From positions 32,993,992-33,057,991 of the forward strand of contig CM077600.1 of assembly GCA_039654915.1 (NCBI GenBank): a stretch of 64,000 nt of DNA, written 5' to 3'. Origin of the DNA: Aquilaria yunnanensis. Its lineage: Eukaryota; Streptophyta; Magnoliopsida; Malvales; Thymelaeaceae. A program made the position numbers and the translations under genes. The notes beneath the pieces are model-generated. The model worked only from the letters and a program-made list of their open reading frames with translations. It made no database searches and had not been told where the DNA came from. Below are positions 3,764 through 49,632 of the stretch, one piece after another; position 1 is the stretch's first letter; every line of letters starts with the position of its first letter.

Positions 3764-4064
3764 TGATGAGAGAAGAATTTGAGAGAAGAATTTGAGAGAA
3801 GAGAGGAAGAAATCAGTTATTGTAGGAAACTATAATAACCGACTATGAGAGTCACGGAATACCGTATCCGCTACTTAAACGGGAAGAAGAACACGCATTT
3901 ATAGCGATGAAAGGATAACGTGTTAATTACGCTTACGGGAGTAAGTACATTATTGTCAAAAGAAAAATGTAAATCTTCAAATATGACAAATTGTATGTAC
4001 AGTGATTGTGACTGTGACTCACATCTTCCACTGGTTTTACGTCCAGTAACGACTTCAACGGCTT

Positions 4065-4613: not shown

Positions 4614-4739
4614 TTTCTAGCGGGAAGTAAAAGAAAGAATGGAGGAAGGAATCAGTTATGATGGGCAACTGAGAGAACCGACTTGAGGGTCACGGAGTAC
4701 CGTTTCCGCCACTTAACCGGAAAAATGGAGCCAACTTTT

Positions 4740-28425: not shown

Positions 28426-28428
28426 GCT

Positions 28429-28447
28429 TGGCGACTCCACTGGGGAC
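28429..28447 (+). other. Primer-binding site of E2
   Basis: TGGCGACTCCACTGGGGAC starts three bases after the LTR end. Its first 11 bases also occur inside the LTR at about 28396, 30 bases before the LTR end. I recall tRNA-Arg as the primer for Ogre/Tat elements with this type of site. Confidence 0.8.
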
Positions 28448-30745: not shown

Positions 30746-30933
30746 ACAAACCTTTTGCTGAATGTAATTGAGAAATTCCATTATAGTTTTTCTTTCACCA
30801 AGTATTTACAATATTCATGCATGCATCCATCACATCAATCATACACACATAGAATCTAATAAAATAAATATTCCTTTAAAAGGGTAAAATTGGACCTCAA
30901 CACCGATATTCAACTCGACTCCAAACAAGATTA

Positions 30934-33900: not shown

Positions 33901-34245
33901 TACGGCCTAGGCTTCACACCGACAAGACATGATAAAATGAAGGCAATAGCTGAAAAGAGAGAAAAGAGGATTGCACGATTAACAGGGCATCCTCTCCAGG
34001 AAAGAAATCTGGATATCCCTGAAATCACCGAAACGTTCGTGAGTGGTGGTCTCATTCCAAAAAATGACAATGAAGGCAAGCTGACTATCAACATCAACAA
34101 GTCTTTTGAAAGTCTTTCTATTCAGGCAATCATCAGCGATTCACCTGAAGAGGAGGAGCTTGTTCAACCTTGTGGCCCACGGGATGTGCTGAACAATTGG
34201 GAGGCGATAGAACTGCCTGTTATAATCGAAAGCTCTCCAAAGTAA
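30934..34245 (+). CDS. Gag-protease polyprotein of E2 (1103 aa)
   Basis: Encodes the capsid-forming Gag and the processing protease. An N-terminal coiled-coil-like segment (1-100) is followed by a retrotransposon gag domain (about 130-300; LFLRRLQPLTKDEKVWIALF) and PNRPNDYPPNRPN repeats (about 345-380). Two zinc-knuckle-like C/H motifs follow at about 439-453 and 539-552. The aspartic protease has LIDNGSALNV (D796-N-G), an unusual DNG in place of DSG/DTG, and its GRPWIHMAGAI segment follows. A G-patch-like glycine motif (GGYSPGLGLGQ) is near 962. The ORF ends TAA at 34243-34245, two bases into a likely splice donor, so the spliced product would continue into pol. Confidence 0.92.
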   Translation: MAEQAEGRLMEMESKIESMSEQMRQLMELIKGKATQVPIKEVQDPTYPPGFTPQRVSVQENLFQESGPSASVHLKQDTVQEEKKTLPKEEAESQKLETIEKRLRAIEGGTIFGSLSVDDLCLVPDVVIPSDFKVPDFVKYDGTSDPITHITLFLRRLQPLTKDEKVWIALFQESLTKSALQWYLSQGPRNIKTWNDLAQAFIGNYKHVMDLAPDRQTLQNMEKKKPETFMEYAQRWRDLAAQVQPPMTEREMVTLFVQTLKYPYYDKLIGNAATNFSDVVMSGERIEHGIRTGKITESFSDPMKRGGPSRRKDEEIQQIGRGRGIPFVGTVATGPRLSYSANKPNYYPTNRPNDYPPNRPNDYLPNRPNNYPPNRPNQLRPPVPTPPVPAPRPREIFAPIPMTYTELYPKLIESQLIRPIPTRPLEPPYPRWYDPNINCPYHDGTVGHGLENCIALKRIVQQLIESKWLDFSDEPNVTHNPLPPHQAKPVNMMEEYWPMKKTVNDIITPLKHVYSCLVKEGIIIGKSSGNKEVEDEEWCNFHNSKSHSIQECPEFRKCLQSLMDSSQIIVFMSDKEDDVNVIIKEQEVNIMPRPLVIPISKSALKPLRIQVPKPFPYKSDKTVPWNYDYTSNITSTPLEVGGMTRSGRCYSPEQMNKLQQEKNVTDPANGPINTSKEQEMPRAVTDEQATEFLKLIKQSEYSIVEQLNRLPAKISILSLLLSSDAHREALLKVLNKAYVEQDISVNNFDHLVNNITAQNLITFTDDEIPAEGRGHSKALHISIKYKDRIMARVLIDNGSALNVMPLETLHKIGLDPSYLNNSHIVVRAFDGTKRDVVGEIELPIGIGPCLFHITFQVMDICPSYTCLLGRPWIHMAGAIPSSLHQKMKFIIEGKIITVFAEEDILLSRPADAQYVEVNENIPDCSFRSFEIVNAAYVSEYGEEPIPSISKTSRMVAKLMIKGGYSPGLGLGQDLQGITEPLKITTNEGKYGLGFTPTRHDKMKAIAEKREKRIARLTGHPLQERNLDIPEITETFVSGGLIPKNDNEGKLTININKSFESLSIQAIISDSPEEEELVQPCGPRDVLNNWEAIELPVIIESSPK

Positions 34246-34439
34246 TCTAATAGTAAAAACCTCCTAAAGAAAGGTTCAATCAATAGGGTGTAGTCTTTGT
34301 TTAAGTGAACCTTTTAGTTATTGCTTTTTATTCCAATAAAGTTGTGATTTATGCACATTGTAAATAAAGTACCAGTTTGCATCCATCTCATTCGTGCCAT
34401 TTTTTTTTCTTCTCTTTCTTTTCTCTCTGGATAATGCAG
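34242..34439 (+). other. Predicted 198-bp intron joining gag-pro to pol
   Basis: The donor is AAA|GTAATC at 34242. The acceptor follows a 35-nt pyrimidine-rich run and reads TAATGCAG| at 34439. The exon left of it ends in phase 2. The 31 bases from 34440 to the pol ATG give one base to finish the codon plus ten sense codons (PKTLFDDNER) without a stop, so splicing fuses gag-pro to pol in frame. The same sites occur in E1. Introns at this place are reported for Ogre elements. Confidence 0.72.
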
Positions 34440-34470
34440 ACCCAAAACTCTCTTTGATGACAATGAAAGA

Positions 34471-37400
34471 ATGAACTTTGATAATCCTGTAAACACTACC
34501 GACTCGGATGACGAAGATCTTCAAGTATCTCCTGAGCTATTAAAAATGATTGAGCGAGATGAAAAAGAAAGAGCAACAAGTCAAGAACCAACTGAGGTAT
34601 TCAACCTGGGAGACAGTCAGGATGTAAAAGAAGTCAAGATTGGCACTTTATTCCCTCCTGAAGAAAAAGAAGAATTAGTCCATTTATTGAAGGAATATGT
34701 GGATGTGTTTGCTTGGTCATACCAAGATATGCCTGGCTTAAGCTCAGACATAGTACTACACAAAATACCCTTGAAACCTGGGGCGAAGCCTGTCAGACAA
34801 AAGTTACGAAGATTAAAGCCGGATCTAATCTTAAGAGTGAAAGATGAGATTCGAAAGCTGTGGGATGCAGGATTCCTTGGGGTCGCTGAATATACAGAAT
34901 GGGTGGTTAACATTGTTCCAGTTGAAAAGAAAGAAAGCGGGAAACTAAGAGTTTGTCAGGACTACCGGCCATTGAACGAAGCCAGTCCTAAAGATAACTT
35001 CCCACTTCCTCACATTGATACGCTGGTGGATAATACCGCAGGAAACTCCTATTTTTCCTTCATGGATGGCTTCTCTGGATACAATCAAATCAAACTTGAT
35101 CCAGATGATATGATAAAAACTGCCTTTATAACCCTTTGGGGTACCTTCTACTACAAGGTGATGCCTTTTGGGTTAAAGAATGCTGGTGCTACATATCAAA
35201 GAGCCATGGTTGCATTATTCCATGACATGATGCATAAAGAAATTGAAGTATATGTAGACGACATGATCGCCAAAACTTTCACTGCTAAGGGGCATCTAAA
35301 AGTGCTAAGAAAACTATTCGATAGACTTCGCAAATATCAACTGAAGTTGAATCCTGCCAAATGTATTTTTGGAGCCTCTTCAGGAAAGTTATTGGGTTTC
35401 ATGGTCAGCAAGGATGGGATTCGAGTTGACCCGAGTAAAGTCAAAGCAATACAAGAAATGCAACCCCCGAAGACTCCAAAACAAGTAAGAAGTTTCCTGG
35501 GCAGAATCAACTTCATAGCAAGGTTCATTTCACAATTGACATCCAAGTGTGAACCTCTTTTCAAATCACTGAAGAAGAACAATCCGATCGAGTGGAATAA
35601 CGAATGCCAAGAAGCATTCGAGAAAATCAAGCAATATCTATCAAATCCACCAGTCTTGGTACCACCCCGATCTGGAGAATCGTTGATTCTATATTTATCC
35701 ATACAGGATTCTTCATTAGGATCCGTATTGGGTCAACGTGATGAGACAGGCAAGAAAGAGCACGCAATTTACTATTTGAGCAAGAAGCTTACCACATATG
35801 AAGCGAAATACTCAATAGTAGAAAAGTCCTGTTGTGCCCTTGCATGGGTAGCACACCGACTACGACACTACATGCTCAACAACACCACATTGCTAATCTC
35901 CAAGACTGATCCCATTAAGTACATTTTTGAGAAACCAGCTTTATCAGGCAGGATCGCAAAATGGCAAATGCTGTTGTCTGAATACGACATACAGTATGTC
36001 ACCCAAAAGGCTGTAAAAGGGAGTGTGATTGCTGAATATCTGGCTGATAGAGCATTGGATGATTATGAGCCAATGAAAATGGAGTTTCCTGATGGAGATA
36101 TAATGACGATAGAACAGGAAGTCTCTAAAGATGATGAAACATGGAAAATGGCATTCGATGGAGCATCTAATGCTTTGGGACAAGGGATTGGAGCCATACT
36201 CATCTCTCCAAGTGGAGAGCAATTCCCTCTTACAGCAAAAATTACATTTCCTTGTACCAACAATATAGTAGAGTATGAGGCATGTGCTATGGGACTCCAA
36301 ATGGCACTGGAATTGAAAGTGCGAGATCTCCGAGTTTATGGGGATTCCGCATTAGTCATATATCAAATCAACGGAGAATGGGAGACAAGGGATTCAAAAT
36401 TGATCCCTTACCAAAAGCTCATACTAGACTTGGCTCGAAAATTCAACAGTATAAGCTTCCATCATCTTCCAAGGGAAGATAATCAAATACCGGATGCTTT
36501 AGCTACTTTGGCTGCTATGTACAAGATCAGTGACCCCGAGCATACTCCTGTGTTCGAGATGAGAATAATAGATTCTCCAGCTTATTGCATGAGCATCGAA
36601 GAAGAATTGGATGGAAAGCCTTGGTATCACGATATCAAGAAATACCTCCAAGAAAGAGTATATCCACCAGAAGTATCAGAAAATGACAAGAAATTTCTAC
36701 GAAGATTGTCAATGGGTTTTCTTTTAAACCTAGACATACTTTACAAGAAAACCCCAGACTCAATGCTACTTCGCTGTGTAGATACTCATGAAGCACGAAA
36801 GATCATGGAAGAAGTTCATTCTGGAATATGTGGAGCACACACTAGTGGTCATACTATGGCAAGACAAATAATGAGGGCTGGTTACTATTGGCTCACATTG
36901 GAAAGTGATTGCGTCAATCACGTAAGAAAATGTCACAAATGCCAAATATATGCCAACAAGATCCAAGCTCCACCTGTTCCTCTTAATGTAACAGCAATAC
37001 CTTGGCCTTTTGCCATGTGGGGAATCGATGTTATTGGAGCGATTACCCCTAAAGCTTCCAATGGTCACAAATTCATCCTAGTTGCAATTGACTACTTTAC
37101 TAAATGGGTAGAAGCTGTGTCTTATGCAAGCGTAACTCAAAAGGTGGTATGCCGGTTCATTAAGAAAGAAATCATTTGTCGCTATGGACCGCCAGAGTGT
37201 ATCATCTCAGACAATGCCACGAACCTGAATAATGCAATGATGCAGACTTTGTGCCAGCAATTCAAAATCAAGCATCTCAATTCAGCACCTTATCGACCGA
37301 TGATGAATGGTGCAGTAGAAGCGGCCAATAAAAATATCAAGAGAATTGTTGAAAAGATGATCGTCACTTACAAGGACTGGCATGAGATGTTACCTTTTGC

Positions 37401-37869
37401 ACTACATGCTTATAGAACTTCTACCCGTACTTCTACTGGAGCAACACCTTTTTCTCTGGTATACGGTATGGAGGCTGTATTGCCCATCGAAGTTGAAATT
37501 CCTTCATTAAGGGTACTAATGGATACTCAATTAGGAGAAGCAGAATGGGTCAAAGCTAGATACGAGCAATTAAATCTAATTGATGAAAGAAGAATGATAG
37601 CCCTCTGCCATGGGCAACTTTATCAAAGAAGGATGATTCGTGCTTACAACAAAAAGGTTCGCCCACGACAATTTCACGAAGGTGACATAGTGCTCAAGAA
37701 AATTTTACCCATGCAACATGATTCAAGAGGAAAATGGACACCAAATTATGACGGGCCATATGTCGTGAAGAAAGCATTTTCAGGAGGGGCACTAATTCTG
37801 ACAGAAATGGATGGACGAGAATTACCGAAGCCAGTAAATTCGGATGCAGTAAAGAAATACTTTGCATAA
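34471..37869 (+). CDS. Pol polyprotein of E2: RT, RNase H, second RNase H, integrase (1132 aa)
   Basis: Copies the RNA genome to DNA and inserts it. RT spans about 120-400 with LRVCQDYRPLN, FSFMDGFSGYNQI and the catalytic YVDDM at about 261-265. The first RNase H (about 410-480) has the degraded form typical when a second is present. The second RNase H starts near 558 (MAFDGASN, EYEACAMGLQ, VYGDSALVI, REDNQIPDALATL); dual RNase H is a known mark of the Tat lineage. Integrase follows with a zinc-binding HSGICGAHTSGHT...CHKCQ (about 783-822), the core D852, D913 and E949 (D,D35E) and a GPYVVKK C-terminus. All catalytic residues are present and no stop interrupts the frame. The ATG at 34471 is used only if the transcript is not spliced. 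Confidence 0.95.
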   Translation: MNFDNPVNTTDSDDEDLQVSPELLKMIERDEKERATSQEPTEVFNLGDSQDVKEVKIGTLFPPEEKEELVHLLKEYVDVFAWSYQDMPGLSSDIVLHKIPLKPGAKPVRQKLRRLKPDLILRVKDEIRKLWDAGFLGVAEYTEWVVNIVPVEKKESGKLRVCQDYRPLNEASPKDNFPLPHIDTLVDNTAGNSYFSFMDGFSGYNQIKLDPDDMIKTAFITLWGTFYYKVMPFGLKNAGATYQRAMVALFHDMMHKEIEVYVDDMIAKTFTAKGHLKVLRKLFDRLRKYQLKLNPAKCIFGASSGKLLGFMVSKDGIRVDPSKVKAIQEMQPPKTPKQVRSFLGRINFIARFISQLTSKCEPLFKSLKKNNPIEWNNECQEAFEKIKQYLSNPPVLVPPRSGESLILYLSIQDSSLGSVLGQRDETGKKEHAIYYLSKKLTTYEAKYSIVEKSCCALAWVAHRLRHYMLNNTTLLISKTDPIKYIFEKPALSGRIAKWQMLLSEYDIQYVTQKAVKGSVIAEYLADRALDDYEPMKMEFPDGDIMTIEQEVSKDDETWKMAFDGASNALGQGIGAILISPSGEQFPLTAKITFPCTNNIVEYEACAMGLQMALELKVRDLRVYGDSALVIYQINGEWETRDSKLIPYQKLILDLARKFNSISFHHLPREDNQIPDALATLAAMYKISDPEHTPVFEMRIIDSPAYCMSIEEELDGKPWYHDIKKYLQERVYPPEVSENDKKFLRRLSMGFLLNLDILYKKTPDSMLLRCVDTHEARKIMEEVHSGICGAHTSGHTMARQIMRAGYYWLTLESDCVNHVRKCHKCQIYANKIQAPPVPLNVTAIPWPFAMWGIDVIGAITPKASNGHKFILVAIDYFTKWVEAVSYASVTQKVVCRFIKKEIICRYGPPECIISDNATNLNNAMMQTLCQQFKIKHLNSAPYRPMMNGAVEAANKNIKRIVEKMIVTYKDWHEMLPFALHAYRTSTRTSTGATPFSLVYGMEAVLPIEVEIPSLRVLMDTQLGEAEWVKARYEQLNLIDERRMIALCHGQLYQRRMIRAYNKKVRPRQFHEGDIVLKKILPMQHDSRGKWTPNYDGPYVVKKAFSGGALILTEMDGRELPKPVNSDAVKKYFA

Positions 37870-39163
37870 TGAAGAAATTTTCGAACAGAAGGGGAGAAGT
37901 GGATACAGGGTTACCAAAGTTTATTTGATCAAAGTTGTCAAAGAGAGCTTTCTTCCCTTACACTTTCATTATCTATCTGTACCTAAGATTTTCATATTCT
38001 TTTACCCATAAATAAAAGCCAATTCTCTTTAACTTACCTTAGATTCTCACGTTCAAAATGCTAAAGTCGCTTCTATCCAGTTCTTTTCCTTCAAATCTCA
38101 CATTCCTACTAGCCTTAAGTGTGCAATAAATTGTGACTTTTGAAGGAAGAATAGTAATAATTAAAACTTAGAAAAAAAAACAAAGACCGTAGATTACTTT
38201 GATAAGCTTTGTGAATTAAAACAGGTAAGATTGAGGTCCTGCTTTGCGAGCAGCACAGAACATAGGCTAACAAAGAAGAAGGAGTAACAAATCTTTGGGA
38301 GATAGCCTTGGTGGTAGCCTGAATGATCATTTCAGAAGTCTTAACATGTCTATGTCAGCAGGAAAGAATCATGCTCACGAATATTTCAACAGGGACAATT
38401 ATCCAGAGAAGCATAAAATATGAGGCGGGCATTAAAGAAAATTGAGGTCAAAATTCAAAAATAAGGCAAGGAAAGAGGATTTTTGAACAGAGTTGGGCTT
38501 TTGAGACAATGGACAACAGCTGGAAAGCATAAAGAGATTCAATAATAGTCCGAGAAGGAAATCACAAAGAAGATCCAGTAAAGTAAAGCAAAGACATGAA
38601 GAGCTAGATTCAAAAAAAAAAAAACATCAATTACACATGCCTTGCATTCATGCATTTCACATCATGCATGCATGGCTTTTACATAACAGGGATCAAATGA
38701 AAAGCATGTCCGCAGCATGATTGCAGCAGTATAAGCTGAGATCTTAATGACATCAGCTCTTACTAATTGGACGCATAGCTAATACGCTGGACCCAGCCCC
38801 ATCAGGAATCCAAGGATAAAGCATACAATATCGTCAAAAGCCTGGCAATTGAGGCTACACCTAAAAGAACAGAATTGATGCCAGCTTAGCAGCATCCAAG
38901 ATGAGTGATAGCTATCGTCAAAGATAAGGCAGACATCAAGAAATATTGTCGTTGAAAATTCGTCAAAAGCGGACAATGGATTCAATAATCAAGGACTGAA
39001 TCGACGTCAGCTGGATGGAATATCTATCACATCAAAATAAAGTAGGATTCACTTTTCCGGTTAAGCGGCGGATACGGTACTCCGTGACTCTCAAGTCGGT
39101 TCTCTCAGTTGCCCATAATAACTGATCATTTCCTCCCTCCTTTCTTTTACTTTCTCCTAGAAA
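37870..39163 (+). other. Spacer between pol and cargo genes of E2
   Basis: Starts with a purine-rich AGAAGGGGAGAAGTGG (37891-37906) just after the pol stop, a position typical of a polypurine tract but far from the 3' LTR. It also has CATGCATGCATGG runs (about 38647-38672) and one copy of the leader unit with GTCGTTGAAAATTCGTC. A conserved leader (CCGGTTAAGCGGCGGATACGG, about 39058-39078) precedes the first cargo gene. No conserved ORF is seen. Confidence 0.6.
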
Positions 39164-39712
39164 ATGGATCCTACTTTTTCTGCCTTGCGAAAATATTTTC
39201 CTTCTCTCCCAATGAACATCCTCAAAAAGATCTACCAAGTTCGCTGTGAACGATTAAGAGCTCTGATGCATAAAGGAATCCCTGAAGATGTGCGGTGGTT
39301 AATTGAAGCTAAGGTTCGTCTGGCAGGTGAAATCCCAGAGGCATTTGTGTCTCACATGCCTGGTGTAGGCAAAAGCTCTTATGCCAAAAAACGAAGAGCG
39401 AGGAGACTAGGCGTCTGTCATAAATGCGGACGCTGGACCTGTAATACTAAATGTCGTTCTTTAGGGATGATCTCTGATAATCGAGAAGATAAAATACGAT
39501 TCATTAAGAATGGCCTGAGTAAGGACTCATTGGATGATCTCCAATTGACTCTTGAGACGCATTCTTGTGGATCTGTGCAACGTGAACTTCTCGATTTATG
39601 GAGCATTTTTCATGAAGAACGAGAACGATACAGTCCCGGGAATCTGACGTTAAACGACCCTATTTGTCAGCTTGTAAGAAAACTGGATGGGAAGCAAATC
39701 CTCGACTCATAG
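39164..39712 (+). CDS. Cysteine-rich nucleic-acid-binding-like protein, cargo copy 1 (182 aa)
   Basis: A small, basic protein. Residues about 1-60 carry a helical region (LRKYFPSLPMNILKKIYQV, then IPEDVRWLIEAKVRLAGE). Residues 69-81 are strongly basic (GKSSYAKKRRARR), followed by C85-X2-C88-X4-C93-X3-C97 (CHKCGRWTCNTKC), a likely zinc finger, and a helical tail. The order helix, GKSxYAK-RRA, cysteine cluster and FIKNGL resembles the cysteine-rich nucleic-acid-binding proteins of carla-, allexi- and mandariviruses. Those are known as RNA-silencing suppressors or pathogenicity factors. The homology is inferred from motif order. It is the first of four tandem copies and the most distinct (ISDNREDKIRF). 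It is intact, with only weak TATA-like sequence upstream. Confidence 0.8.
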   Translation: MDPTFSALRKYFPSLPMNILKKIYQVRCERLRALMHKGIPEDVRWLIEAKVRLAGEIPEAFVSHMPGVGKSSYAKKRRARRLGVCHKCGRWTCNTKCRSLGMISDNREDKIRFIKNGLSKDSLDDLQLTLETHSCGSVQRELLDLWSIFHEERERYSPGNLTLNDPICQLVRKLDGKQILDS

Positions 39713-39871
39713 AAGCCATTAATCCCGTTACTGGACGTAAAACCAGTGGAAGATGTGAGCCACAGTCACAATCACTGTACATACAATTTATCATATTTAA
39801 AATTTTTCATTTTTCTTTTAATAATGTATTTGCTCCCGTAAGTGTAATCGACACGTTATCCATTTCATCGC

Positions 39872-39879
39872 TATAAATG
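39872..39879 (+). promoter_or_regulatory. TATA box upstream of cargo copy 2
   Basis: TATAAATG in TTTCATCGCTATAAATGC, 86 bp before the ATG. The surrounding GTAAT...ACACGTTATCC...TCATCGC block recurs before the next copy, so a promoter was duplicated with the gene. Confidence 0.6.
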
Positions 39880-39957
39880 CATGTTCTTCCAGTCGGTTAT
39901 CTAAGTTTCCTTCAATAACTAATTCCTTCCCTCTTCTCTCAAATTCTTCTCTCATCA

Positions 39958-40506
39958 ATGGATTCTACTCTTTCTGCACTGCGAAAATACTTTCCTTCCT
40001 TTCCAATAAAAGTCCTTAAAAAGATCTACCTTGCTAGATGTGAAAGAATCAGAGTTTTTACACGCAAAGGCATTCCCGATAATGTGCAGTGGATAATTGA
40101 AGCTAAGGTCCGTCTGGCGGGTGAAGTTCCAGATGCATTTATGCCCCGCATGCCCGGTTTAGGTAAAAGCCGTTATGCCAAAAGGCGAAGAGCAAAGAGA
40201 CTAGGCGTGTGTTATAAATGTGGGCGATGGAATTGTATTACTAAATGTCGCTCTTTAGGATACATCTCCATAAATCGTGAAGATAAAAGAAAATTCATTA
40301 AGAATGGCCTGCGTAAGGAATCTCTGGAAGATATCCGAGAGACTCTTGAAACGCATTCTTGTGGAAAAGTGCAAGGTGAAATTATCAGTTTATGGAGGAC
40401 TTACCATAAAGAACGAAACCGTTACAGTCTTGGGAATGTGACTTTAAACGATCCTGTTTGTCAGTTTGTAAGAAAACTGGATGGGAAGCAAATCCCCGAC
40501 TTATAG
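39958..40506 (+). CDS. Cysteine-rich nucleic-acid-binding-like protein, cargo copy 2 (182 aa)
   Basis: Same layout as copy 1: an N-terminal helical part, the basic GKSRYAKRRRAKR, cysteines in CYKCGRWNCITKC, then RKFIKNGLRKESLEDIRETLETHSCG and a C-terminus ending KLDGKQIPDL. It is closer to copies 3 and 4 than to copy 1 in its middle part (ALRKYFPSFP, GYIS). The gene is intact, starts at the ATG aligned in every copy and has its own TATA box. The 245-bp gap to copy 1 and the 255-bp gap to copy 3 hold related promoter sequence. Substitutions are spread over the protein, while the cysteines and the basic run are kept. Confidence 0.8.
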   Translation: MDSTLSALRKYFPSFPIKVLKKIYLARCERIRVFTRKGIPDNVQWIIEAKVRLAGEVPDAFMPRMPGLGKSRYAKRRRAKRLGVCYKCGRWNCITKCRSLGYISINREDKRKFIKNGLRKESLEDIRETLETHSCGKVQGEIISLWRTYHKERNRYSLGNVTLNDPVCQFVRKLDGKQIPDL

Positions 40507-40649
40507 ATGGCATTGAAGCCATTACTGGACATAAATCAGGGGAAGATGAGAGCCACGGTCATGATTCCTGTACATATAAGCTGTCATTTGTCTTTTCTTT
40601 TAATATACTTGTTCCTGTAAGCGTAATTAACACGTTATCCTTTCATCGC

Positions 40650-40657
40650 TATAAATG
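40650..40657 (+). promoter_or_regulatory. TATA box upstream of cargo copy 3
   Basis: TATAAATG within CACGTTATCCTTTCATCGC-TATAAATGCG, 112 bp before the ATG. It is followed by the CCGGTTAAGTAGCGGATAC leader also seen before copy 1 and in E1. Confidence 0.6.
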
Positions 40658-40761
40658 CGTGTTCTTCTTTCCGGTTAAGTAGCGGATACAATACTCTCTG
40701 ACTCTCAGTTTCCTACAATAACTGATTTCTTCATCTCTTCTCTCAAATTCTTCTTTTATCA

Positions 40762-41310
40762 ATGGATTCTACTCTTTCCGCCATGCGAAAATACTTTCCT
40801 TCCATCCCAATAAATGTTCTTAAAATGATTTACCAAGCTAGATGTGAAAGGATTAGAGTCTTTATGCACAAAGGCATTCCTGACAATGTGCGGTGGCTAA
40901 TTGAAGCTAAGGTTCGTTCAGCTGGTGAAGTTCCAGAAGCGTTCTTTCCCCGTATGCCCGGCTTTGGTAAAAGCGCTTATGCCAAAAAGCGAAGAGCAAA
41001 GAGGCTTGGTGTCTGTCATAAATGTGGACGATGGAATTGTAATACTAAATGTCGCTTTTTAGGATACATCTCCAGAAATCATGAAGATAAAAGAAAATTC
41101 ATCAAGAATGGCCTGCGTAAGGAATCTTTGGATGATATCCTATTAACTTTTGAAACACATTCTTGTGAAATAGTGCAATGGGAAATTATGGATTTATGGT
41201 GGACTTTCCGTAAAGAACAGGATCGTTACAGTCTTGGAAATCTAACTTTTAATGACCCTGTTTGCCAGTTTGTGAGAAAACTGGATGGGAAGCAAATCCC
41301 CGACTTATAG
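40762..41310 (+). CDS. Cysteine-rich nucleic-acid-binding-like protein, cargo copy 3 (182 aa)
   Basis: Intact 182-aa member of the tandem family, with the basic run GKSAYAKKRRAKR at 69-81 and cysteines 85, 88, 93 and 97. It differs from copy 2 mainly in the SAGEVPEAFFPRMPGFG segment, which it shares with copy 4, and in DDILLTFETHSC, which recalls copy 1. This patchwork suggests recombination or gene conversion among the copies. Function is inferred from the motif order only: nucleic-acid binding, possibly interference with silencing. The basic run could also act as a nuclear signal. Confidence 0.8.
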   Translation: MDSTLSAMRKYFPSIPINVLKMIYQARCERIRVFMHKGIPDNVRWLIEAKVRSAGEVPEAFFPRMPGFGKSAYAKKRRAKRLGVCHKCGRWNCNTKCRFLGYISRNHEDKRKFIKNGLRKESLDDILLTFETHSCEIVQWEIMDLWWTFRKEQDRYSLGNLTFNDPVCQFVRKLDGKQIPDL

Positions 41311-41460
41311 AAGGCATTGAAGCCGTTACTAGACATAAATCAGTGGAAGATGAGAGCCACAGTCATGATTACTGTACATATAAGCTGTCATTTGTCTTTT
41401 CTTTTGACAATAATGTACTTGCTTCTGTAAGTGTAATAAACGCATTATCCCTTTCGTCAC

Positions 41461-41468
41461 TATAAATA
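41461..41468 (+). promoter_or_regulatory. TATA box upstream of cargo copy 4
   Basis: TATAAATA in CGTCACTATAAATATG, 66 bp before the ATG, in the same promoter context as the boxes of copies 2 and 3. Confidence 0.6.
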
Positions 41469-41526
41469 TGTGTTAGTTATGTTCGTTTCCTACAATCACT
41501 AATTTCTTTCTTTGCCTCCTTCATCA

Positions 41527-42075
41527 ATGGAGTCTTCTCTTTCCGCCCTACGAAAGTATTTTCCTTCCTTCCCAATAAATGTTCTTAAAAAGATTTATCA
41601 AGCTAGATGTGAACGATTCAGAGTATTTATGCACAAAGGCATTCCTGATAATGTGCGGTGGCTAATTGAAGCTAAGGTTCGTTCAGCTGGTGAAGTTCCC
41701 GAAGCGTTCTTTCCCCGTATGCCCGGCTTTGGTAAAAGCGCTTATGCCAAAAAAAGAAGAGCAAAGAGGCTAGGCGTTTGTCATAATTGTGGATGGTGGA
41801 TTTGCGGCAATAAATGTCGTGCTCCAGGAGTGATCACCAGAAATCGTAATGATAGAATAAGATTCATTAAGAATGGCTTGCGTAAGGAATCTCTAGAAGA
41901 TATTCGAGAGGTTCTTGAAGCGCATTCTTGTGGAATAGTGCAATTTGAGGTTGTTGGATTATGGATAATTTTCCAAAAAGAACGAGATCGTTACAGTCTT
42001 GGGAATCTGACCCTAAACGACCCTGTTTGCCAGTTTGTGAGAAAGCTAGATGAGATGCAAATCACCGATTCATAG
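41527..42075 (+). CDS. Cysteine-rich nucleic-acid-binding-like protein, cargo copy 4 (182 aa)
   Basis: Last of the tandem genes, intact. The start at ATG 41527 (MESSLSALRKYF) is aligned with the other copies. The upstream in-frame codons have no ATG. The cysteine cluster reads CHNCGWWICGNKC: GRW has become GWW, but all four cysteines are kept. E1 copy 3 has the same variant, so this subtype predates the split of E1 and E2. The tail differs (QFEVVGLWIIFQKE). It is followed by the TGACG-rich array that precedes LOG. Confidence 0.8.
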   Translation: MESSLSALRKYFPSFPINVLKKIYQARCERFRVFMHKGIPDNVRWLIEAKVRSAGEVPEAFFPRMPGFGKSAYAKKRRAKRLGVCHNCGWWICGNKCRAPGVITRNRNDRIRFIKNGLRKESLEDIREVLEAHSCGIVQFEVVGLWIIFQKERDRYSLGNLTLNDPVCQFVRKLDEMQITDS

Positions 42076-42119
42076 AAAACATTGAAGCCATTACTGGACG
42101 CAAAGCCAGTGGAAGACGA

Positions 42120-42660
42120 GGATCAAAGTCACGATTACTGTACGTGCTAGCTGTCGCTTTTGAAATTTTCCTCCCCTTTTGGTAATAATGTATCCACTCT
42201 TGACGTGAACCAAAGTCACGATTACTGTACGTACTAGCTGTCGCTTTTGAAATTTTCCTCCCCTTTTGGTAATAATGTATCCACTCCTGACGTGAACCAA
42301 AGTCACGATTACTGTACGTACTAGCTGTCGCTTTTGAAATTTTCCTCCCCTTTCAGCGATAATGTATCCACTCCTGACATGAGCCATAGTCACGATTACT
42401 GTACGTGTTAGCTGTCGCTTTTGAAATTTTCCTCCCCTTTGGCAATAATGTACCCACTCCTGACACGGACTACTGTATATAGCTGCCACTTTTGAAATTT
42501 TCCTTCTCTTCCAACAATCACGTACTTACTCCTGACGTAAGCTACAGTAGTGACTACTGTACATGCTAGCAGCTATTTTGAAAATTTTCCTCCTCTTTTA
42601 ACGATAGTGTACCCATACCTGACCAGAGTCATACTCGTGACTACTGTGTATAGCTGGCAA
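42120..42660 (+). repeat. TGACG-rich tandem repeats upstream of the LOG-like gene (about six units of 83 bp)
   Basis: Units share CACTCCTGACGTGAACC, AAGTCACGATTACTGTACGT and TTTTGAAATTTTCCTCCCC. The first four are closely similar and the last two diverged. TGACG(T) is the as-1/TGA-factor core found in strong viral and T-DNA promoters. The array lies directly before the TATA box of LOG, so it is a plausible enhancer. Open frames across it on the minus strand (132 codons) reflect the repeat length and are not called as a gene. Confidence 0.75.
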
Positions 42661-42709
42661 TAATGTATCCACTCTTGAAAATAAAATTATTGCCTTATCT
42701 CTTCATCTC

Positions 42710-42719
42710 TATAAATATA
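42710..42719 (+). promoter_or_regulatory. TATA box of the E2 LOG-like gene
   Basis: CTATAAATATATCC, 40 bp before the ATG at 42750 and just after the TGACG-rich array. The distance is short but leaves room for a short leader. Confidence 0.6.
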
Positions 42720-42749
42720 TCCTCTTTTCTCACAAGGATAAGGATAGGA

Positions 42750-43379
42750 ATGGAGAAAACCCCAACTCGTAAATCCCGAAGTATTTGTGTATTTTCTGGG
42801 GCTTTTCCTGGAAAAGATGAAGAGTATTTAAAAGCAGCCAACCATTTGGGAAGAGTATTAGCTGAGCGAAAAATACATTTAGTTTATGGAGGAGGTAGTG
42901 TCGGATTAATGGGAGGTGTAGCATCAGCAGCATCTCTAGGAGGAAGTCAAGTTCTGGGTATTATCCCTGGACCTCTGAAATTTATTTCTGGGGGCACGAT
43001 TGGAGAAGAATTAGTGGTTAAAAATTTGCAAGAGCGTGTGTTACAAATGCTTTTAAATGCTGATGCTTTTATCGCTCTACCAGGTGGTTTTGGCACGTTG
43101 GGAGAAGTCTTTCAAATTGCTTCCATGGCCCAACTTAATTTGCATAAGAAACCCATTGGGCTTTTAAATGTTAACAATTTCTTTACAGGTCTGATAGCTT
43201 TTATGGATTATGCTATGCAGAAGAATTTCATATCAAGAGTGGCACGGCGAATCATAATATCCGCAACAACTGCTGAAGAATTGCTAGATAAAATACAAGC
43301 TTTTGTTCCTGAACCAGATCCAGCAATGATTCAGATAGACTGGACACGACAGTCTTTCCCGACCAGTTCACTCCCATAA
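42750..43379 (+). CDS. LOG-like cytokinin riboside 5'-monophosphate phosphoribohydrolase (209 aa), retrotransposon cargo
   Basis: The family releases free cytokinin base and ribose 5-phosphate from cytokinin nucleotides in the cytosol, the one-step activation route. The single Rossmann-like domain shows SICVFSGAFPGK near 13-24, LVYGGGSVGLMGGVA near 49-63, R96 in LQER and the signature PGGFGTLGE with E119. Plant LOGs usually have a histidine and lysine around that arginine (HQRK), so the pocket has drifted. Length matches the family (about 200-230 aa). It is intronless and has its own TATA box, unlike ordinary multi-exon plant LOG genes. It is in frame with no stop, while the E1 copy lost both frame and E119. 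Activity is inferred, not shown. Confidence 0.88.
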   Translation: MEKTPTRKSRSICVFSGAFPGKDEEYLKAANHLGRVLAERKIHLVYGGGSVGLMGGVASAASLGGSQVLGIIPGPLKFISGGTIGEELVVKNLQERVLQMLLNADAFIALPGGFGTLGEVFQIASMAQLNLHKKPIGLLNVNNFFTGLIAFMDYAMQKNFISRVARRIIISATTAEELLDKIQAFVPEPDPAMIQIDWTRQSFPTSSLP

Positions 43380-43925
43380 TGGTCCTCTACTCACCCTGTT
43401 GAAGTATTGTGGAAGAAAGAAGCTATCTGATCCGTTTTTCTTGTCCTTTAGTTTTATTATCAGCATTTTCTTTCGCGTTTCAGTTTTTCTTTTCAGGGAA
43501 TTTCTTTTTTTTATATATAAGATAGTTTCGTCCATGCTGATATTAAAACCATGCGACAATGCCTTTAGGTTGGAATGGCTGAGTAAAGAGTAATTTTTAT
43601 TACTCTTGAGACGCATCCTATTAGGTCTACTAGGCATAACATTTTGGGGTAGTTAAGCTTTAACCTTATTTGGATGACATATCTCACAAGGGAATCTATA
43701 TTTACTGAAGAAAATATTAGATGAACCTTGGATATTGATTCCAAACATCCGTTCCCTTTACATAATTTGTCAGTGTTATTGTCATCATCAAGATTCACTC
43801 ATCTTATCGAAGTTTAAATTTTTGCACTCACCTATTATGAAAATTCACACTTTCGAAGAAAATTATTCCAATTTCAATTGCTTTCATATAAATTTCGCTC
43901 GAGGTCCTAAGGAAAGCTCTTTAGC
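43380..43925 (+). other. LOG 3' trailer of E2
   Basis: Non-coding. It contains a perfect hairpin with 9-bp arms AAGAGTAAT/ATTACTCTT and a TTTT loop at 43586-43607, which is damaged in E1. No gene is seen. Confidence 0.55.
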
Positions 43926-44075
43926 CTCAAAATCAAACAATCCGGGGTTTTAAGGATGGAACCTTTGCCTCGAGATCAATCAATCAATTTGAGGTTTTAA
44001 GGATGGAACCTTTGCCTCGACATCAATCAATCAATCCGAGGTTTTAAGGATGGAACCTTTGCCTCGACATCAATC
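43926..44075 (+). repeat. Short tandem repeat before the hairpin array
   Basis: Three units of about 45-50 bp built on GAGGTTTTAAGGATGGAACC and TTTGCCTCGACATCAATCA. Confidence 0.75.
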
Positions 44076-45525
44076 ATTCAGTCCATCTTACAACGATAGA
44101 ACCTTTCCTATCGTTAGAGGTTCCAAGGACCTTTCCTTAAACCTCAAACAAACAATCAATCATTCAGTCCATCTTACAACGATAGAACCTTTCCTATCGT
44201 TAGAGGTTCTAAGGACCTTTCCTTAACCTCAAACAAACAATCAATCATTCAGTCCATCTTACAACGATAGAACCTTTCCTATCGTTAGAGGTTCTAAGGA
44301 TCTTTCCTTAAACCTCAAACAAACAATCAATCATTCAGTCCATCTTACAACGATAAAACCTTTCCTATCGTTAGAGGTTCTAAGGATCTTTCCTTAAACC
44401 TCAAACAAACAATCAATCATTCAGTCCATCTTACAACGATAGAACCTTTCCTATCGTTAGAGGTTCCAAGGACCTTTCCTTAAACCTCAAACAAACAATC
44501 AATCATTCAGTCCATCTTACAACGATAGAACCTTTTCTATCGTTAGAGGTTCCAAGGACCTTTCCTTAAACCTCAAACAAACAATCAATCATTCAGTCCA
44601 TCTTACAACGATAGAACCTTTCCTATCGTTAGAGGTTCTAAGGACCTTTCCTTAAACCTCAAACAAACAATCAATCATTCAGTCCATCTTACAACGATAG
44701 AACCTTTCCTATCGTTAGAGGTTCTAAGGACCTTTCCTTAAACCTCAAACAAACAATCAATCATTCAGTCCATCTTACAACGATAGAACCTTTCCTATCG
44801 TTAGAGGTTCTAAGGATCTTTCCTTAACCTCAAACAAACAATCAATCATTCAGTCCATCTTACAACGATAGAACCTTTCCTATCGTTAGAGGTTCTAAGG
44901 ATCTTTCCTTAAACCTCAAACAAACAATCAATCATTCAGTCCATCTTACAACGATAGAACCTTTCCTATCGTTAGAGGTTCTAAGGACCTTTCCTTAAAC
45001 CTCAAACAAATAATCAATCATTCAGTCCATCTTACAACGATAGAACCTTTCCTATCGTTAGAGGTTCTAAGGACCTTTCCTTAAACCTCAAACAAACAAT
45101 CAATCATTCAGTCCATCTTACAACGATAGAACCTTTCCTATCGTTAGAGGTTCTAAGGATCTTTCCTTAACCTCAAACAAACAATTAATCATTCAGTCCA
45201 TCTTACAACGATAGAACCTTTCCTATCGTTAGAGGTTCTAAGGACCTTTCCTTAAACCTCAAACAAACAATCAATCATTCAGTCCATCTTACAACGATAG
45301 AACCTTTCCTATCGTTAGAGGTTCCAAGGACCTTTCCTTAAACCTCAAACAAACAATCAATCATTCAGTCCATCTTACAACGATAGAACCTTTCCTATCG
45401 TTAGAGGTTCTAAGGACCTTTCCTTAACCTCAAACAAACAATCAATCATTCAGTCCATCTTACAACGATAGAACCTTTCCTATCGTTAGAGGTTCTAAGG
45501 ACCTTTCCTTAAACCTCAGAGTTTA
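44076..45525 (+). repeat. Hairpin tandem array of E2: 17 units of about 86 bp
   Basis: Every unit has AACGATAG-AACCTTTC-CTATCGTT (8-bp arms, 8-nt loop), then AAGGACCTTTCCTT with flanking AGGTT/AACCT. Each unit can therefore form two stem-loops. Units are nearly identical, with a few single-base variants such as AACGATAAAACC at about 44350. The array ends in GAGTTTAGGCGGCGAGAAGG, shared with E1 at about 301-325. It lies between LOG and the polypurine tract. Confidence 0.93.
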
Positions 45526-45609
45526 GGCGGCGAGAAGGTTTTCAATGCCTAGCTAAGCTGGACGAAATTTGGTAACTAACTTTGCATACATCATGTCCCA
45601 TGAAGCATG

Positions 45610-45623
45610 CAAAGGGGGGCAGC
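45610..45623 (+). other. Polypurine tract of E2
   Basis: CAAAGGGGGGCAGC, directly abutting the 3' LTR and identical to the tract in E1. Confidence 0.88.
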
Positions 45624-48600
45624 TGTTGACACCCAATTTCGTCCGGCCATTAAAATAATTTTAAAAAAAAATTAAATAAAAAAAATTAAATAAAAAAATG
45701 TATTATTATTATTATTGTTATTATTATTACTAAATTTTTTTTTAATTAGTTTAAAATATATATATATATTTTTTTTAAGATTTGATATATGTGTGTATAT
45801 GTGTATGTTTGAAAGAAAAAAAGAAAACTCCATAAAAATGACAAAATTTAAAAGTTTGAGGTAAAAATGACAAAATTAAGAAGTTTCAGGCAAAATTGAC
45901 AAATTCTGAAAGTTCCAGGAGCATTTGGCAGTTTGTCACATAAAATTTTGAGCCTGCCGACGTTTTTGGCTCAAATTGACAGAAAACGACAAAATTGTCA
46001 AAATCAGAAGCTTCAGGAACTTATCCAGAGGCTGAGAGACGTAAAGGACTAAAATTGTCATTTTACCAATTTAAGAGATAAGTTTGAAATTTTTTATTAA
46101 TTTATCCGTCCACAGTTCAGCCAAACTCCTTCTATAAATACCCCTCCAAATTCAGTGATGAACACAGAAAAAAATAGCAAAAAAACTTAGAGCTCCGTTT
46201 TAAAAAAAAATAAAATTACAGCCCTTAGCCCCAGCCCTCTTCCCTTCTTCCCCAGAAAGCCAAAACTTTTTTTTCTTTTCTCTGTTCCGTCTCTCTCTCT
46301 CTCTCTCTCTCGCCGTGCCCACCACCGCCGTCCGCCGGCCACCACGCCTCCGCCCAGCCGTCCTGCCGCCGTCGTCCGGCCGTCCCGCCGCCGTCGCCGT
46401 CGTACCCAGCCTGACGTCCGCCGCCGCGCCGTTCCCCTTTTCTTCTTCTCTCCCTGCGCCGGCTGCTGCCCGCCGCTCCTCCACCGCCCTCCGCTTCGCG
46501 CCGTTGCCCCTCCGCCCGTGCTCGCCGTCGCCCTGCGCTTCCGCCCCCACGCCCTTGCGCCCCGTGCCCTCGCCGCCGCTCGCCTGGCTGCCCCTCCCTC
46601 CCCCCACGCCGTCCGTGTCGCGCCTCTTTCCTGGGATTCAAAAACAAAAACTAAAGGGTATAACTCTTGTTTTGTCTTCTATCTTTTCAATTTCTTTCAC
46701 TTTGGTCACTAACCTTTTATTTTGTTCTTGCAGAATTAATTCCTAACTATTTTAATTTTTATTTGTTTATTATTGTTATTATTACTAACCTTTTTTTTTT
46801 TGTTATTAGCAACTAACAACTAACTTGCTAATTTTTACTAACCTTTATTATTATTGTTGTTAATAATTAATTAAATTGTCTAACTTTTATTTTTGTTGTA
46901 ATTAATTAACTTAATTAAACTTGGCTAACTTTTATTTTTGTTGTAATTAATTAACTTAATTAAACTTGGCTAACTTTTATTTATTGTTGTTAATTAATTA
47001 ACTTAATTAAACTTGGCTAATTTTTATTTATTGTTGTTAATTAATTAACTTAATTAAACTTGGCTAATTTTTATTTATTGTTGTTAATTAATTAACTTAA
47101 TTAAACTTGGCTAACTTTTATTTATTGTTGTTAATTAATTAACTTAATTAAACTTGGTTAATTTTTATTTATTGTTGTTAATTAATTAACTTAATTAAAC
47201 TTGGCTAACTTTTATTATTGTTGTTAATTAATTAAATTAATTAAATTGTCTAACTTTTATTTTTGTTGTAATTAATTAACTTAATTAACTTGACTAACTT
47301 TTTATTATTGTTGTTAACCATTAATTTAATTAAACTTGGCTAATTTTTATTATTGTTGTTAATTAATTTAATCTAACTTTTACTAACCTTTTTTATTGTT
47401 ATTAACTAACTAATCCAACTAATCTAACTATATTAATTGTGCTAACTTTTATTATTATTGTATTATTAAAGTGGATGGCCAAAAAGCCCCACTTTATTAA
47501 TTGAATTTTTTTATGATTAAAAGATAAAAAAAGGAATTTTATGTGAATAATTTTCTAAAGGTTAATAAAAATTACTTTTTTTATTTTGAAACAAAGTTTT
47601 TATTCCTTTTAATAAACAAACATAATGAAATAATTCAAAAATAAAATAAATAAATAAATAAACATAAAACCATTCTTTTAATACATCTTTAAAATTAATA
47701 ATTAATGAAATAAAAAAATTTAATTAAAACTCCATGACCAAATGATCCGCCAGGATCCATGGCTCGGAAATATTTTTAAAATAAAATATATAAATAAATT
47801 TTTTTCTTTATAAAAAAAAAAAAAAAAAAAAACTTTAGACTAATATATTAATTATCTATTAATATATAATTTTTTTTAGTTTTCTTTATTAAAAAGAATA
47901 AAAAGCGTAAAATTTTTGAGTTAATATTTTTCAATAATATTTTATTTATTTCTTTTAAAAATATAATTTTTTTTAGTTTTCTTTATTAATAAAAAGAATG
48001 AAAAGAATAAAAATTTTGGGTTAATATTTTATTCAGTAATATTTTACTTATTAAAAGATATAACTTTTTGTTTCCTTTATAAAAATCTTAATCAAATAAT
48101 TTCAAAATAATACAAAATAAAACAAAAATAATTGAATTTTCTCTTAAATATTTTTGACTTATTGATTAGATATATTTTCAGAAATATAAATTAAAATTAA
48201 AAAAAAATCTTTCATCAAACAAAGAAGAATATAAAAATAAAAATATCAAGACTTTTGTTTTAAAATACATATAAGTTTTCGGTTAAATAATCTTTTATTC
48301 CAAAAATAAATTAAATAAATATCAAAACTTTTCTTCTTTTGTTTAAAATTTTTGATTCTCTTAATAAAAAAAAATAATAATAAAAAAAAATAATAAAAAA
48401 TAAAAATAAAAATAAAAATTTTTTTTAGTTCATGGTATATTGGCTGGAAACTGTCTCGTGCCCGCTTTTGAGCTGCTTCACCTGGTGAAGAGGGTCTGGC
48501 TGAGTAACAACGCCCCGTACCATGATCAAAATTTTTATTTTTAAACTCTTTAATTCTTTTAAATTAACTTCTTATTAAATAAAAATTAATTATTATTTTT

Positions 48601-49627: not shown

Positions 49628-49632
49628 GTCAG

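What the first reader, a model, noticed from the sequence alone, without database searches (positions are those of the whole stretch)
39164..43379. Retrotransposon cargo island: four virus-like cysteine-rich genes plus an intact LOG cytokinin-activating gene
Between pol and the 3' LTR of a young Tat/Ogre element lie four intact tandem 182-aa genes and an intact LOG-like gene, all on the element strand. The older element E1 has the same order (three plus one), so the cargo is a stable part of the family and not a one-off capture. If the small proteins suppress silencing and LOG raises active cytokinin, the element could both evade host silencing and promote cell division or survival in cells where it transposes. 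I know of no described plant LTR retrotransposon with this pair.
Basis: partly seen in the sequence, partly recalled or inferred. Interest (0 to 1): 0.95.

Follow-up and report, generated by a model that had tools for sequence, protein, structure and literature searches.

The report
Virus-like gene cargo in plant retrotransposon
A giant, recently active plant jumping gene carries several copies of a small protein resembling plant-virus silencing suppressors plus a reworked hormone-enzyme gene, and natural selection appears to keep these extra genes working, which suggests they help the element spread.

Summary
Window 24469-49627 is a complete Ogre-type Ty3/gypsy element (25,159 bp; LTRs identical except one 47-bp repeat unit; 5-bp target duplication). 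Between pol and the 3' LTR lie four intact 182-aa genes and one LOG-family gene, all sense.

The small proteins pass Pfam's cut-offs for Carla_C4 and Viral_NABP, flexivirus nucleic-acid-binding proteins. Named relatives come from Populus, Citrus, Acer, Xanthoceras, Rhamnella, Orobanche, Striga.

The cargo is not a neutral passenger: 33 of 35 near-identical copies keep all five frames open; variants private to one copy are 19 synonymous: 30 nonsynonymous, shared ones 23: 4. Three of three other loci read repeat the NABP-then-LOG order.

Corrections: LOG probably starts at 42750 (209 aa). "Cytokinin-activating" is doubtful: the catalytic Arg/Glu pair remains, but all six adenine/prenyl-pocket residues differ.

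A LOG-type domain in Citrus and Populus gypsy elements is in print; searches showed no report of NABP genes in retrotransposons. Inferred: the NABPs counter RNA silencing; the LOG relative has another substrate.

The parts
24469..49627 (+). Complete Ogre-type Ty3/gypsy LTR retrotransposon (E2), 25,159 bp, TSD GTCAG at 24464-24468 and 49628-49632
   Evidence: LTR alignment and flanks
24469..28425 (+). 5' LTR (3957 bp), TATA-like CTATAAAT at 24977; primer-binding site begins just downstream (GCTTGGCGACTCCACTGGGGAC); tRNA not identified
29051..30745 (+). ORF1, DUF7745 / plant mobile domain
   Evidence: Pfam E 5.2e-56 (DUF7745) and 1e-8 (PMD, 35.2 bits against a cut-off of 34.9)
30934..34245 (+). 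gag-protease ORF with G-patch domain
   Evidence: Retrotrans_gag and G-patch over cut-off; protease match weak, below cut-off
34242..34439 (+). Predicted 198-nt intron (GT...AG) between protease and RT, as described for Ogre
   Evidence: removal keeps one frame open with no stop; Ogre intron described in PMC6317226 (passage); no RNA data
34471..37869 (+). pol: RT, RNase H, second (archaeal-type) RNase H, integrase
   Evidence: Pfam order RVT_1, RT_RNaseH, RVT_3, Integrase_H2C2, rve
39164..39712 (+). NABP gene N1 (182 aa); no TATAAA within 300 nt upstream
   Evidence: Carla_C4 29.1 bits, Viral_NABP 29 bits
39871..39878 (+). TATA-like box (CTATAAAT) of N2
39958..40506 (+). NABP gene N2 (182 aa)
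   Evidence: Viral_NABP 31.5 bits, Carla_C4 24.3 bits
40649..40656 (+). TATA-like box of N3
40762..41310 (+). NABP gene N3 (182 aa)
   Evidence: Viral_NABP 26.5 bits, Carla_C4 25.2 bits
41460..41467 (+). TATA-like box of N4
41527..42075 (+). NABP gene N4 (182 aa from ATG)
   Evidence: Viral_NABP 27.1 bits, Carla_C4 21.9 bits
42124..42464 (+). 87-nt tandem repeat (3.9 copies) between N4 and LOG
42709..42716 (+). TATA-like box of the LOG gene; similar boxes before LOG in E1 and at three other loci
42750..43379 (+). LOG-derived gene (209 aa; longest ORF begins 42663). Catalytic Arg/Glu kept, base pocket changed
   Evidence: Lysine_decarbox E 1.8e-30 for the 238-aa ORF; residue tables
44069..45518 (+). 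86-nt tandem repeat array (16.9 copies) between LOG and the 3' LTR
45624..49627 (+). 3' LTR (4004 bp), preceded by purine-rich tract GCAAAGGGGGGCAGC
1311..4738 (-). Cargo of the older element E1: three NABP copies and LOG, same order, all broken

Best explanation
This is an Ogre-type LTR retrotransposon with a dedicated accessory-gene block downstream of pol: a tandem array of flexivirus-type nucleic-acid-binding protein (NABP) genes and one LOG-derived gene. Shown here: both gene types carry the mark of protein-level selection across replication cycles, and the NABP-then-LOG order is shared by the element copies and other loci read in this genome. Inferred: N2-N4 and LOG are transcribed from their own TATA promoters as separate mRNAs, which would get round the problem that distal ORFs of a very long RNA are poorly translated. 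Inferred: the NABPs, with a basic (K/R)RRA(K/R) stretch beside a Cys4 cluster, bind nucleic acid and act like carlavirus cysteine-rich proteins, blunting RNA silencing of the element's long RNA and possibly entering the nucleus; several copies raise dosage. Inferred: the LOG relative is a nucleotide phosphoribohydrolase (catalytic Arg/Glu and PGGxGT loop kept) whose base specificity has moved away from cytokinin nucleotides.
For: Pfam cut-offs for both NABP models passed by 4 of 4 NABPs; neither model matches any of six reversed or shuffled decoys (six of the eight printed were scanned). Foldseek's best viral matches for a low-confidence model: of the top 17, 15 are plant viruses that I place by recall in the flexivirus order (10 annotated 'RNA silencing suppressor'), 2 unnamed. 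35 copies, 33 fully open. Private variants 19 syn: 30 nonsyn, shared variants 23: 4, Fisher p 1e-4. dN/dS 0.20-0.40 in the six N1-N4 pairs, 0.19 for E1/E2 LOG, 0.13-0.19 for window LOG against three other loci. Same order at 3 of 3 further loci read. TATA-like boxes 40-112 nt upstream of N2, N3, N4 and LOG; CTATAAAT occurs 14 times in the window against 5.7 expected, 0 of 100 shuffles as high. Pocket residues. Carlavirus CRPs described as silencing suppressors, and CVB p12 as a transcription factor causing hyperplasia (passages in PMC12172455 and PMC8839810).
Against: No expression, small-RNA or biochemical data. The Cys spacing is CX2CX4CX3C, not the CX2CX12CX4C reported for a carlavirus CRP. 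No fold match reaches E 0.001 and the model is poor (mean pLDDT 65.6; a first model 56.2). N1 has no TATAAA within 300 nt; the boxes of N2-N4 are not independent (duplicated units). Some comparisons show weak or no constraint: LOG 48/49 0.76, N4 48/50 1.11, N2 window/50 0.49, a degenerate NABP fragment 0.51; the first two rest on few changes and may be decay after insertion. Singletons are also below the neutral expectation (p 0.009), so part of the synonymous excess may be mutation bias. No gag/pol or non-coding yardstick was measured in the 35 copies.
Confidence: 0.55

Rival explanations
1. The LOG gene is a working cytokinin-activating enzyme and the element raises cytokinin to promote division of cells where it transposes.
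For: LOG-family homology to AtLOG3 (2a33, E 8.9e-52); catalytic Arg99 and Glu122 and the PGGxGT loop kept; purifying selection; some relatives carry the NCBI name of a cytokinin riboside 5'-monophosphate phosphoribohydrolase, which is an annotation, not a test.
Against: Met96, His97, Lys100, Glu121, Glu125 and Trp129 (CgLOG numbering, mapped by me through the MHxRK and PGGxGTxxE motifs and AtLOG3) read Leu, Gln, Val, Gly, Gln and Met here; the paper says alanine substitution of the crucial AMP-binding and catalytic residues nearly abolished CgLOG activity, S19A excepted; the text I saw does not list each mutant. Lys100 is already lost in 112 of 119 other listed LOG relatives (the 120 best of 7226 hits were listed).
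Confidence: 0.18
2. The cargo is a neutral passenger captured once and copied along.
For: Individual copies decay after insertion: the E1 genes compared are all broken; two close pairs show dN/dS of 0.76 and 1.11.
Against: Shared variants 23 syn: 4 nonsyn against a neutral expectation of about 1: 3.5; low dN/dS between families; relatives of both genes in other plants, and a Citrus gene model joining parts of both.
Confidence: 0.05
3. The NABPs are chiefly DNA-binding regulators of the element's or the host's transcription (like CVB p12), not silencing suppressors.
For: [quoted passage not shown] basic stretch beside a Cys cluster.
Against: The same viral proteins are also described as silencing suppressors; no binding-site data here.
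Confidence: 0.25
4. The NABPs are packaging or nucleocapsid-like RNA-binding helpers of the element's own RNA, unrelated to silencing.
For: A viral cysteine-rich protein, BSMV gamma-b, is described in virus morphogenesis (PMC11213338, search listing with start of abstract only); nucleic-acid-binding look.
Against: Gag is already present; no data on particles.
Confidence: 0.15

Closest known systems
Ogre / Tat Ty3-gypsy elements (PMC6317226, passages)
   Same: aRH between RH and INT, PMD (found in 57% of Ogre elements there), two polyprotein ORFs separated by an intron-like gap, very large LTRs and tandem repeats
   Different: That survey called extra ORFs only from 250 codons up, so 182- and 209-aa genes would not be counted; NABP genes are not mentioned in the passages I saw
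YgdH/LOG-domain Ty3-gypsy elements of Citrus and Populus (PMC9289625, passages and one section, citing Steinbauerova 2011)
   Same: LOG-family domain inside a gypsy element
   Different: No NABP reported there (the words carlavirus and NABP do not occur); I have not seen those LOG sequences as elements, so their pocket was not compared directly
Flexivirus NABP/CRP (Pfam Carla_C4, Viral_NABP)
   Same: Pfam match, basic stretch directly before a Cys4 cluster
   Different: 182 aa, different Cys spacing, encoded in tandem in a retrotransposon
VANC anti-silencing proteins of VANDAL transposons (PMC5735166, PMC10398659: listing with start of abstract; PMC13317346: passage)
   Same: transposon-encoded protein that counters host silencing (for the NABPs this is inferred)
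   Different: DNA transposon, sequence-specific protein, no virus-type NABP
Orchid gypsy elements with a 2-ODD m6A demethylase (PMC9289625)
   Same: giant Tat-related element with an added enzyme gene
   Different: different enzyme; tandem NABPs not reported

Membership tests
Ogre-type LTR retrotransposon | LTRs, 5-bp TSD, purine-rich tract before the 3' LTR | tested here: met
Ogre-type LTR retrotransposon | second (aRH) RNase H between RH and INT | tested here: met
   RVT_3 at 570-680 between RT_RNaseH and Integrase_H2C2/rve; criterion (shared with Retand) from PMC6317226
[quoted passage not shown]
   sequence fits: 198-nt GT-AG stretch whose removal keeps one frame; no RNA data
Ogre-type LTR retrotransposon | PBS complementary to tRNA-Arg | tested here: inconclusive
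   PBS sequence read, the tRNA search did not complete
Ogre-type LTR retrotransposon | RT-RH-INT phylogenetic placement | not tested
   no reference set on hand
LOG cytokinin phosphoribohydrolase | PGGxGTxxE motif and catalytic Arg/Glu | tested here: met
LOG cytokinin phosphoribohydrolase | adenine- and prenyl-binding residues Met96, His97, Lys100, Glu121, Glu125, Trp129 | tested here: not met
   all six differ
LOG cytokinin phosphoribohydrolase | release of free cytokinin from its nucleotide | not testable with these tools
   enzyme assay needed
Flexivirus NABP/CRP | passes the curated Pfam cut-off | tested here: met
   4 of 4 pass both Carla_C4 and Viral_NABP; 0 of 6 decoys match either
Flexivirus NABP/CRP | basic motif directly before the Cys cluster | tested here: met
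   [KR]RRA[KR] in 85 of 89 aligned proteins, 4 from the window and 85 chosen from the 120 listed hits
Flexivirus NABP/CRP | carlavirus zinc-finger spacing CX2CX12CX4C | tested here: not met
   CX2CX4CX3C in 78 of 89; viral spacing for one carlavirus from PMC8839810
Flexivirus NABP/CRP | RNA-silencing suppression | not testable with these tools
   reporter assay needed
Selected accessory genes of a transposon | protein-level purifying selection across transposition cycles | tested here: met
   no non-coding yardstick

The most novel reading that the evidence does not exclude
Plant Ogre-lineage retrotransposons carry, across eudicots, a standing two-gene counter-defence module: tandem silencing suppressors that share descent with flexivirus NABPs (gene exchange between retrotransposons and RNA viruses, in either direction), plus a LOG-derived hydrolase rebuilt for a different nucleotide, perhaps a defence or silencing signal.
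Probability: 0.3. Interest if true: 0.92.

Novelty: new variant of a known kind. Interest (0 to 1): 0.74.

Why it matters
How plant retrotransposons escape silencing and burst to high copy number is largely open; the plant transposon anti-silencing protein named in the papers I saw is VANC, of a DNA transposon. A retrotransposon with virus-type suppressor homologs in tandem, under selection across copies and with relatives in several eudicot families (families by recall), would make retrotransposon counter-silencing directly testable and would link RNA-virus and retrotransposon gene pools. The genes fall under the 250-codon cut-off of one large survey of extra ORFs (PMC6317226), which may be why they have been overlooked. 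The changed LOG pocket is a natural test of substrate switching in the LOG family.

Tried and rejected
Rejected: neutral passenger (selection contrast); one-off capture (same order at 3 of 3 further loci and in E1; relatives in other plants); 238-aa LOG (start moved to 42750); ordinary cytokinin LOG (pocket residues).

Led nowhere: IMG/VR scan with the NABP alignment (60 stretches matched a pattern, none a relative) and with a pattern for the basic/Cys motif (10 stretches, none a NABP by eye); profile search with a shortened NABP to reach viral proteins (713 hits at E 0.01; none of the 120 listed has a viral name, most have no name); first structure model (pLDDT 56); solved-structure search for NABP (one match, E 0.83); P0110 (Orobanche) against the window gag-protease ORF (no significant match); a first alignment of copies not turned to one strand and a first motif table that misread some LOG rows, both replaced. 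Two cited papers on carlavirus CRPs are not held, nor a DOI I tried from memory for the Steinbauerova paper; I know their content only through citing passages or recall.

Not done: gag/pol or non-coding polymorphism in the 35 copies; RT phylogeny; host species identification; host LOG genes outside elements (the LOG search filled its list with 150 near-identical copies).


Full report
What is there. Window 24469-49627 is one complete LTR retrotransposon: LTRs 24469-28425 (3957 bp) and 45624-49627 (4004 bp) with no substitution over 3957 aligned positions and one extra 47-bp repeat unit, flanked by GTCAG on both sides. It inserted recently. Inside are ORF1 with DUF7745/plant mobile domain, gag-protease with a G-patch, and RT - RNase H - second RNase H - integrase. 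The place of the second RNase H, the PMD and the gap between the two polyprotein ORFs are features given for Ogre in PMC6317226 (passages); a 198-nt GT-AG stretch at 34242-34439 can be removed leaving one open frame. No RT tree was made.

Cargo. Between pol and the 3' LTR lie four 182-aa genes and a LOG-family gene. All four small proteins pass the Pfam cut-offs for Carla_C4 and Viral_NABP; six reversed or shuffled versions match neither. An AlphaFold2 model is of low confidence (mean pLDDT 65.6), so structure alone proves little; of its 17 best matches in a library of viral protein models, 15 are plant viruses that I place by recall among the flexiviruses (10 annotated 'RNA silencing suppressor', 2 'nucleic acid binding', 1 'putative RNA binding', 2 otherwise) and 2 are unnamed; none reaches E 0.001. 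In 89 aligned proteins (4 from the window, 85 chosen from the 120 listed hits) the shared core is [KR]RRA[KR] (85 of 89) followed by CX2CX4CX3C (78 of 89); one described carlavirus protein has CX2CX12CX4C (PMC8839810 passage). I therefore call them relatives of flexivirus NABPs, not carlavirus CRPs.

Copies in this genome. A search with the 4.2-kb cargo gave 36 matches, 35 of them full-length at 99-100% identity; only 35 of 3690 first-look candidates were scored. I fetched all 35: in 33 of 35 all five ORFs are open; one copy has a stop in N1, one in LOG. These were the best-scoring copies, so openness by itself is biased by youth. A search with the LOG protein listed 150 matches (150 scored of 4045 candidates), none with a stop inside. 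A search with Viral_NABP listed 150 (150 scored of 7050 candidates), all over the cut-off, 144 with no stop in the matched stretch; the family did not ring in 14 control genomes. Three of those places were read (ranks 1, 3 and 7 of the list): all three show NABP-like ORFs followed by LOG. L048 has three NABP-like ORFs (118 aa, near the end of the stretch fetched, then 177 and 187 aa), L049 two shorter ones (146 and 173 aa), L050 two of 182 aa. The LOG ORF is 209 aa from MEKTPT at all three, which makes window 42750 the likely start.

Selection. Among N1-N4, dN/dS is 0.20-0.40 (six pairs). Between E2 and the older, broken element E1 it is 0.14 (ORF1), 0.12 (gag-pro), 0.12 (pol), 0.19 (LOG) and 0.22, 0.39 and 0.33 for the three NABP copies; a degenerate NABP fragment at 22968-23732 gives 0.51. 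Window LOG against the three other loci gives 0.19, 0.14 and 0.13; LOG 48/50 and 49/50 0.20 and 0.22; N4 0.24 and 0.35, N2 0.49 (the NABPs of L049 and N2 of L048 were not compared). Close pairs go the other way: LOG 48/49 0.76, N4 48/50 1.11, with few changes. In the 35 copies, variants seen once are 19 synonymous and 30 nonsynonymous; variants shared by at least two copies are 23 and 4; Fisher p 1e-4 overall, 0.005 for LOG, 0.017 for the four NABPs together. Neutral sites would give about 3.5 nonsynonymous per synonymous change. The singletons are also below that (binomial p 0.009), which may reflect mutation bias, so the contrast between the two classes is the safer statement; I had no non-coding or gag/pol yardstick from the same copies. 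Read plainly, changes passed on through active elements are mostly silent: selection filters the cargo proteins between transpositions.

Expression signals. CTATAAAT occurs 14 times in the window, 5.7 expected, 0 of 100 shuffles as many. Four lie upstream of N2, N3, N4 and LOG (TATAAA 40-112 nt before the ATG), two at the same place in the two LTRs of E2; N1 has no TATAAA within 300 nt. Boxes are also present at matching places in E1 (before two NABP copies; before LOG the box reads CTATAAAG) and before LOG at the three other loci. N2-N4 are duplicated units, so there are about two independent cargo cases, not four. That these are promoters is inference.

LOG. The protein is closest in solved structures to 2a33 (At2g37210; the name AtLOG3 is from PMC4979012 and recall) (E 8.9e-52). 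PMC4979012 (passages and the active-site section) names Arg99 and Glu122 as catalytic, Met96, Lys100 and Glu121 around adenine, and Met96, His97, Lys100, Glu125 and Trp129 around the prenyl group. I mapped these through the motifs and 2a33, not through an aligned CgLOG sequence. Here Arg99 and Glu122 and the PGGxGT loop are kept; the six others read Leu, Gln, Val, Gly, Gln and Met, and the serine I took for Ser19 reads Ala, a change that raised activity in CgLOG. Among 119 other listed relatives (the 120 best of 7226 hits) Lys100 is kept in 7, Glu121 in 114, Trp129 in 117. So the loss of Lys100 is common in this group, while Glu121 and Trp129 are rarely changed outside the window LOG and its close relative P0121. 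In a tree of 119 proteins (six rows left out, two trimmed) the window LOG sits with the other relatives on a long branch (0.6, shared with P0121), apart from 2a33, 1ydh and a Thalictrum protein (support 99/91; the bootstrap had not settled; canonical plant LOGs thinly sampled). The altered pocket residues are the same at the other three loci, under low dN/dS, so this looks like a changed enzyme rather than decay.

Other plants. 159 proteins of 172 candidates matched the NABP (120 listed, each row showing PF01623); named ones come from Populus, Xanthoceras, Acer, Rhamnella, Orobanche and Citrus, and Populus alba and Striga in a second search. Signs that they are element genes next to LOG: a Citrus gene model (P0116) joins a NABP to parts of a LOG (49% identical over 84 aa to the window LOG), though in my own scan its Pfam matches fall below the cut-offs and the LOG active-site segment is missing; a Rhamnella model joins an integrase-like tail (E 8e-5 to the window pol, 23% identity) to a NABP. 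By eye, eight longest-contig lengths occur in both the NABP and the LOG lists: 8723, 4511, 2128 and 1386 could hold both genes and share a source; 905 and 1018 are too short for both, 1514 has different sources, and one is a Xanthoceras chromosome. Short lengths thus coincide by chance, so only 8723 and 4511 carry weight, and neither contig was seen. An Orobanche model joins a protease-like stretch to a NABP but did not match the window protease significantly; the look of that stretch, and of the Rhamnella tail, as Athila-type is recall.

Comparison with print. PMC9289625 (passages and the section on non-canonical domains) reports the YgdH/LOG domain in Citrus consensus sequences, and in Populus trichocarpa with a filter off, citing Steinbauerova 2011 (not seen). 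PMC6317226 called extra ORFs from 250 codons up, so genes of 182 and 209 aa would not be counted. A review of additional ORFs, PMC7264820, has no mention of LOG, cytokinin, YgdH or Citrus (word search). I found no paper in the held open library that reports NABP genes in a retrotransposon: searches (0 papers; 20 listed of 158; 15 of 4708; 12 of 31; 2 papers, on glyoxalases; 10 of 14); only titles and starts of abstracts of the listed ones were seen, apart from the papers named here, and most subscription papers are not held, so this is weak evidence of absence. PMC11963269 (abstract, passages and section 11 part 1) says that sense ORFs between pol and the 3' LTR of the Retand elements studied encode no known domain.

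How it most likely works. Carlavirus CRPs are described as silencing suppressors and symptom determinants, and CVB p12 also as a transcription factor causing hyperplasia (passages in PMC12172455 and PMC8839810). The most economical model is that the NABPs protect the element's long RNA, or its transcription, from host silencing, with dosage from tandem copies, while the LOG relative hydrolyses a nucleotide other than a cytokinin precursor. The first half is inferred from homology and selection; the second from residues and selection. Neither was tested biochemically.

Noticed in passing
window 22968-23732 (minus): A degenerate NABP copy (about 79% identical to N2) outside the matched parts of E1 and E2; no LOG match to E2 was seen beside it. 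Probably a remnant of a third element.
   Followed up: partly
window 1-18700 (minus) and C8:32991070 onward: Older element E1; its LTRs are about 94% identical over the main aligned stretch. pol and LOG are closer to E2 (dS 0.20, 0.14) than gag-pro and ORF1 (dS 0.46, 0.59), which hints at recombination between subfamilies.
   Followed up: partly
window 25683-26166 and 46838-47368: 47-nt tandem repeat in the LTR; one 47-nt unit more in the 3' LTR is the only difference between the two LTRs.
   Followed up: yes
window 44069-45518: Very regular 86-nt tandem array (16.9 copies, 98% matches) between LOG and the 3' LTR.
   Followed up: no
window 19491-20956 and 52016-53456: A 1.4-kb direct repeat, 90% identical, on either side of E2; another repeat family.
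   Followed up: no
cargo of L001-L004 against 31 other copies: The window copy and three others lack one base at 39925 between N1 and N2 and share several variants against the other 31 copies, so at least two lineages amplified recently.
   Followed up: partly
L028 (C8:49433000-49442999): A partial, 78% identical cargo match lies just upstream of a full-length copy, so two elements are adjacent or one is rearranged.
   Followed up: no
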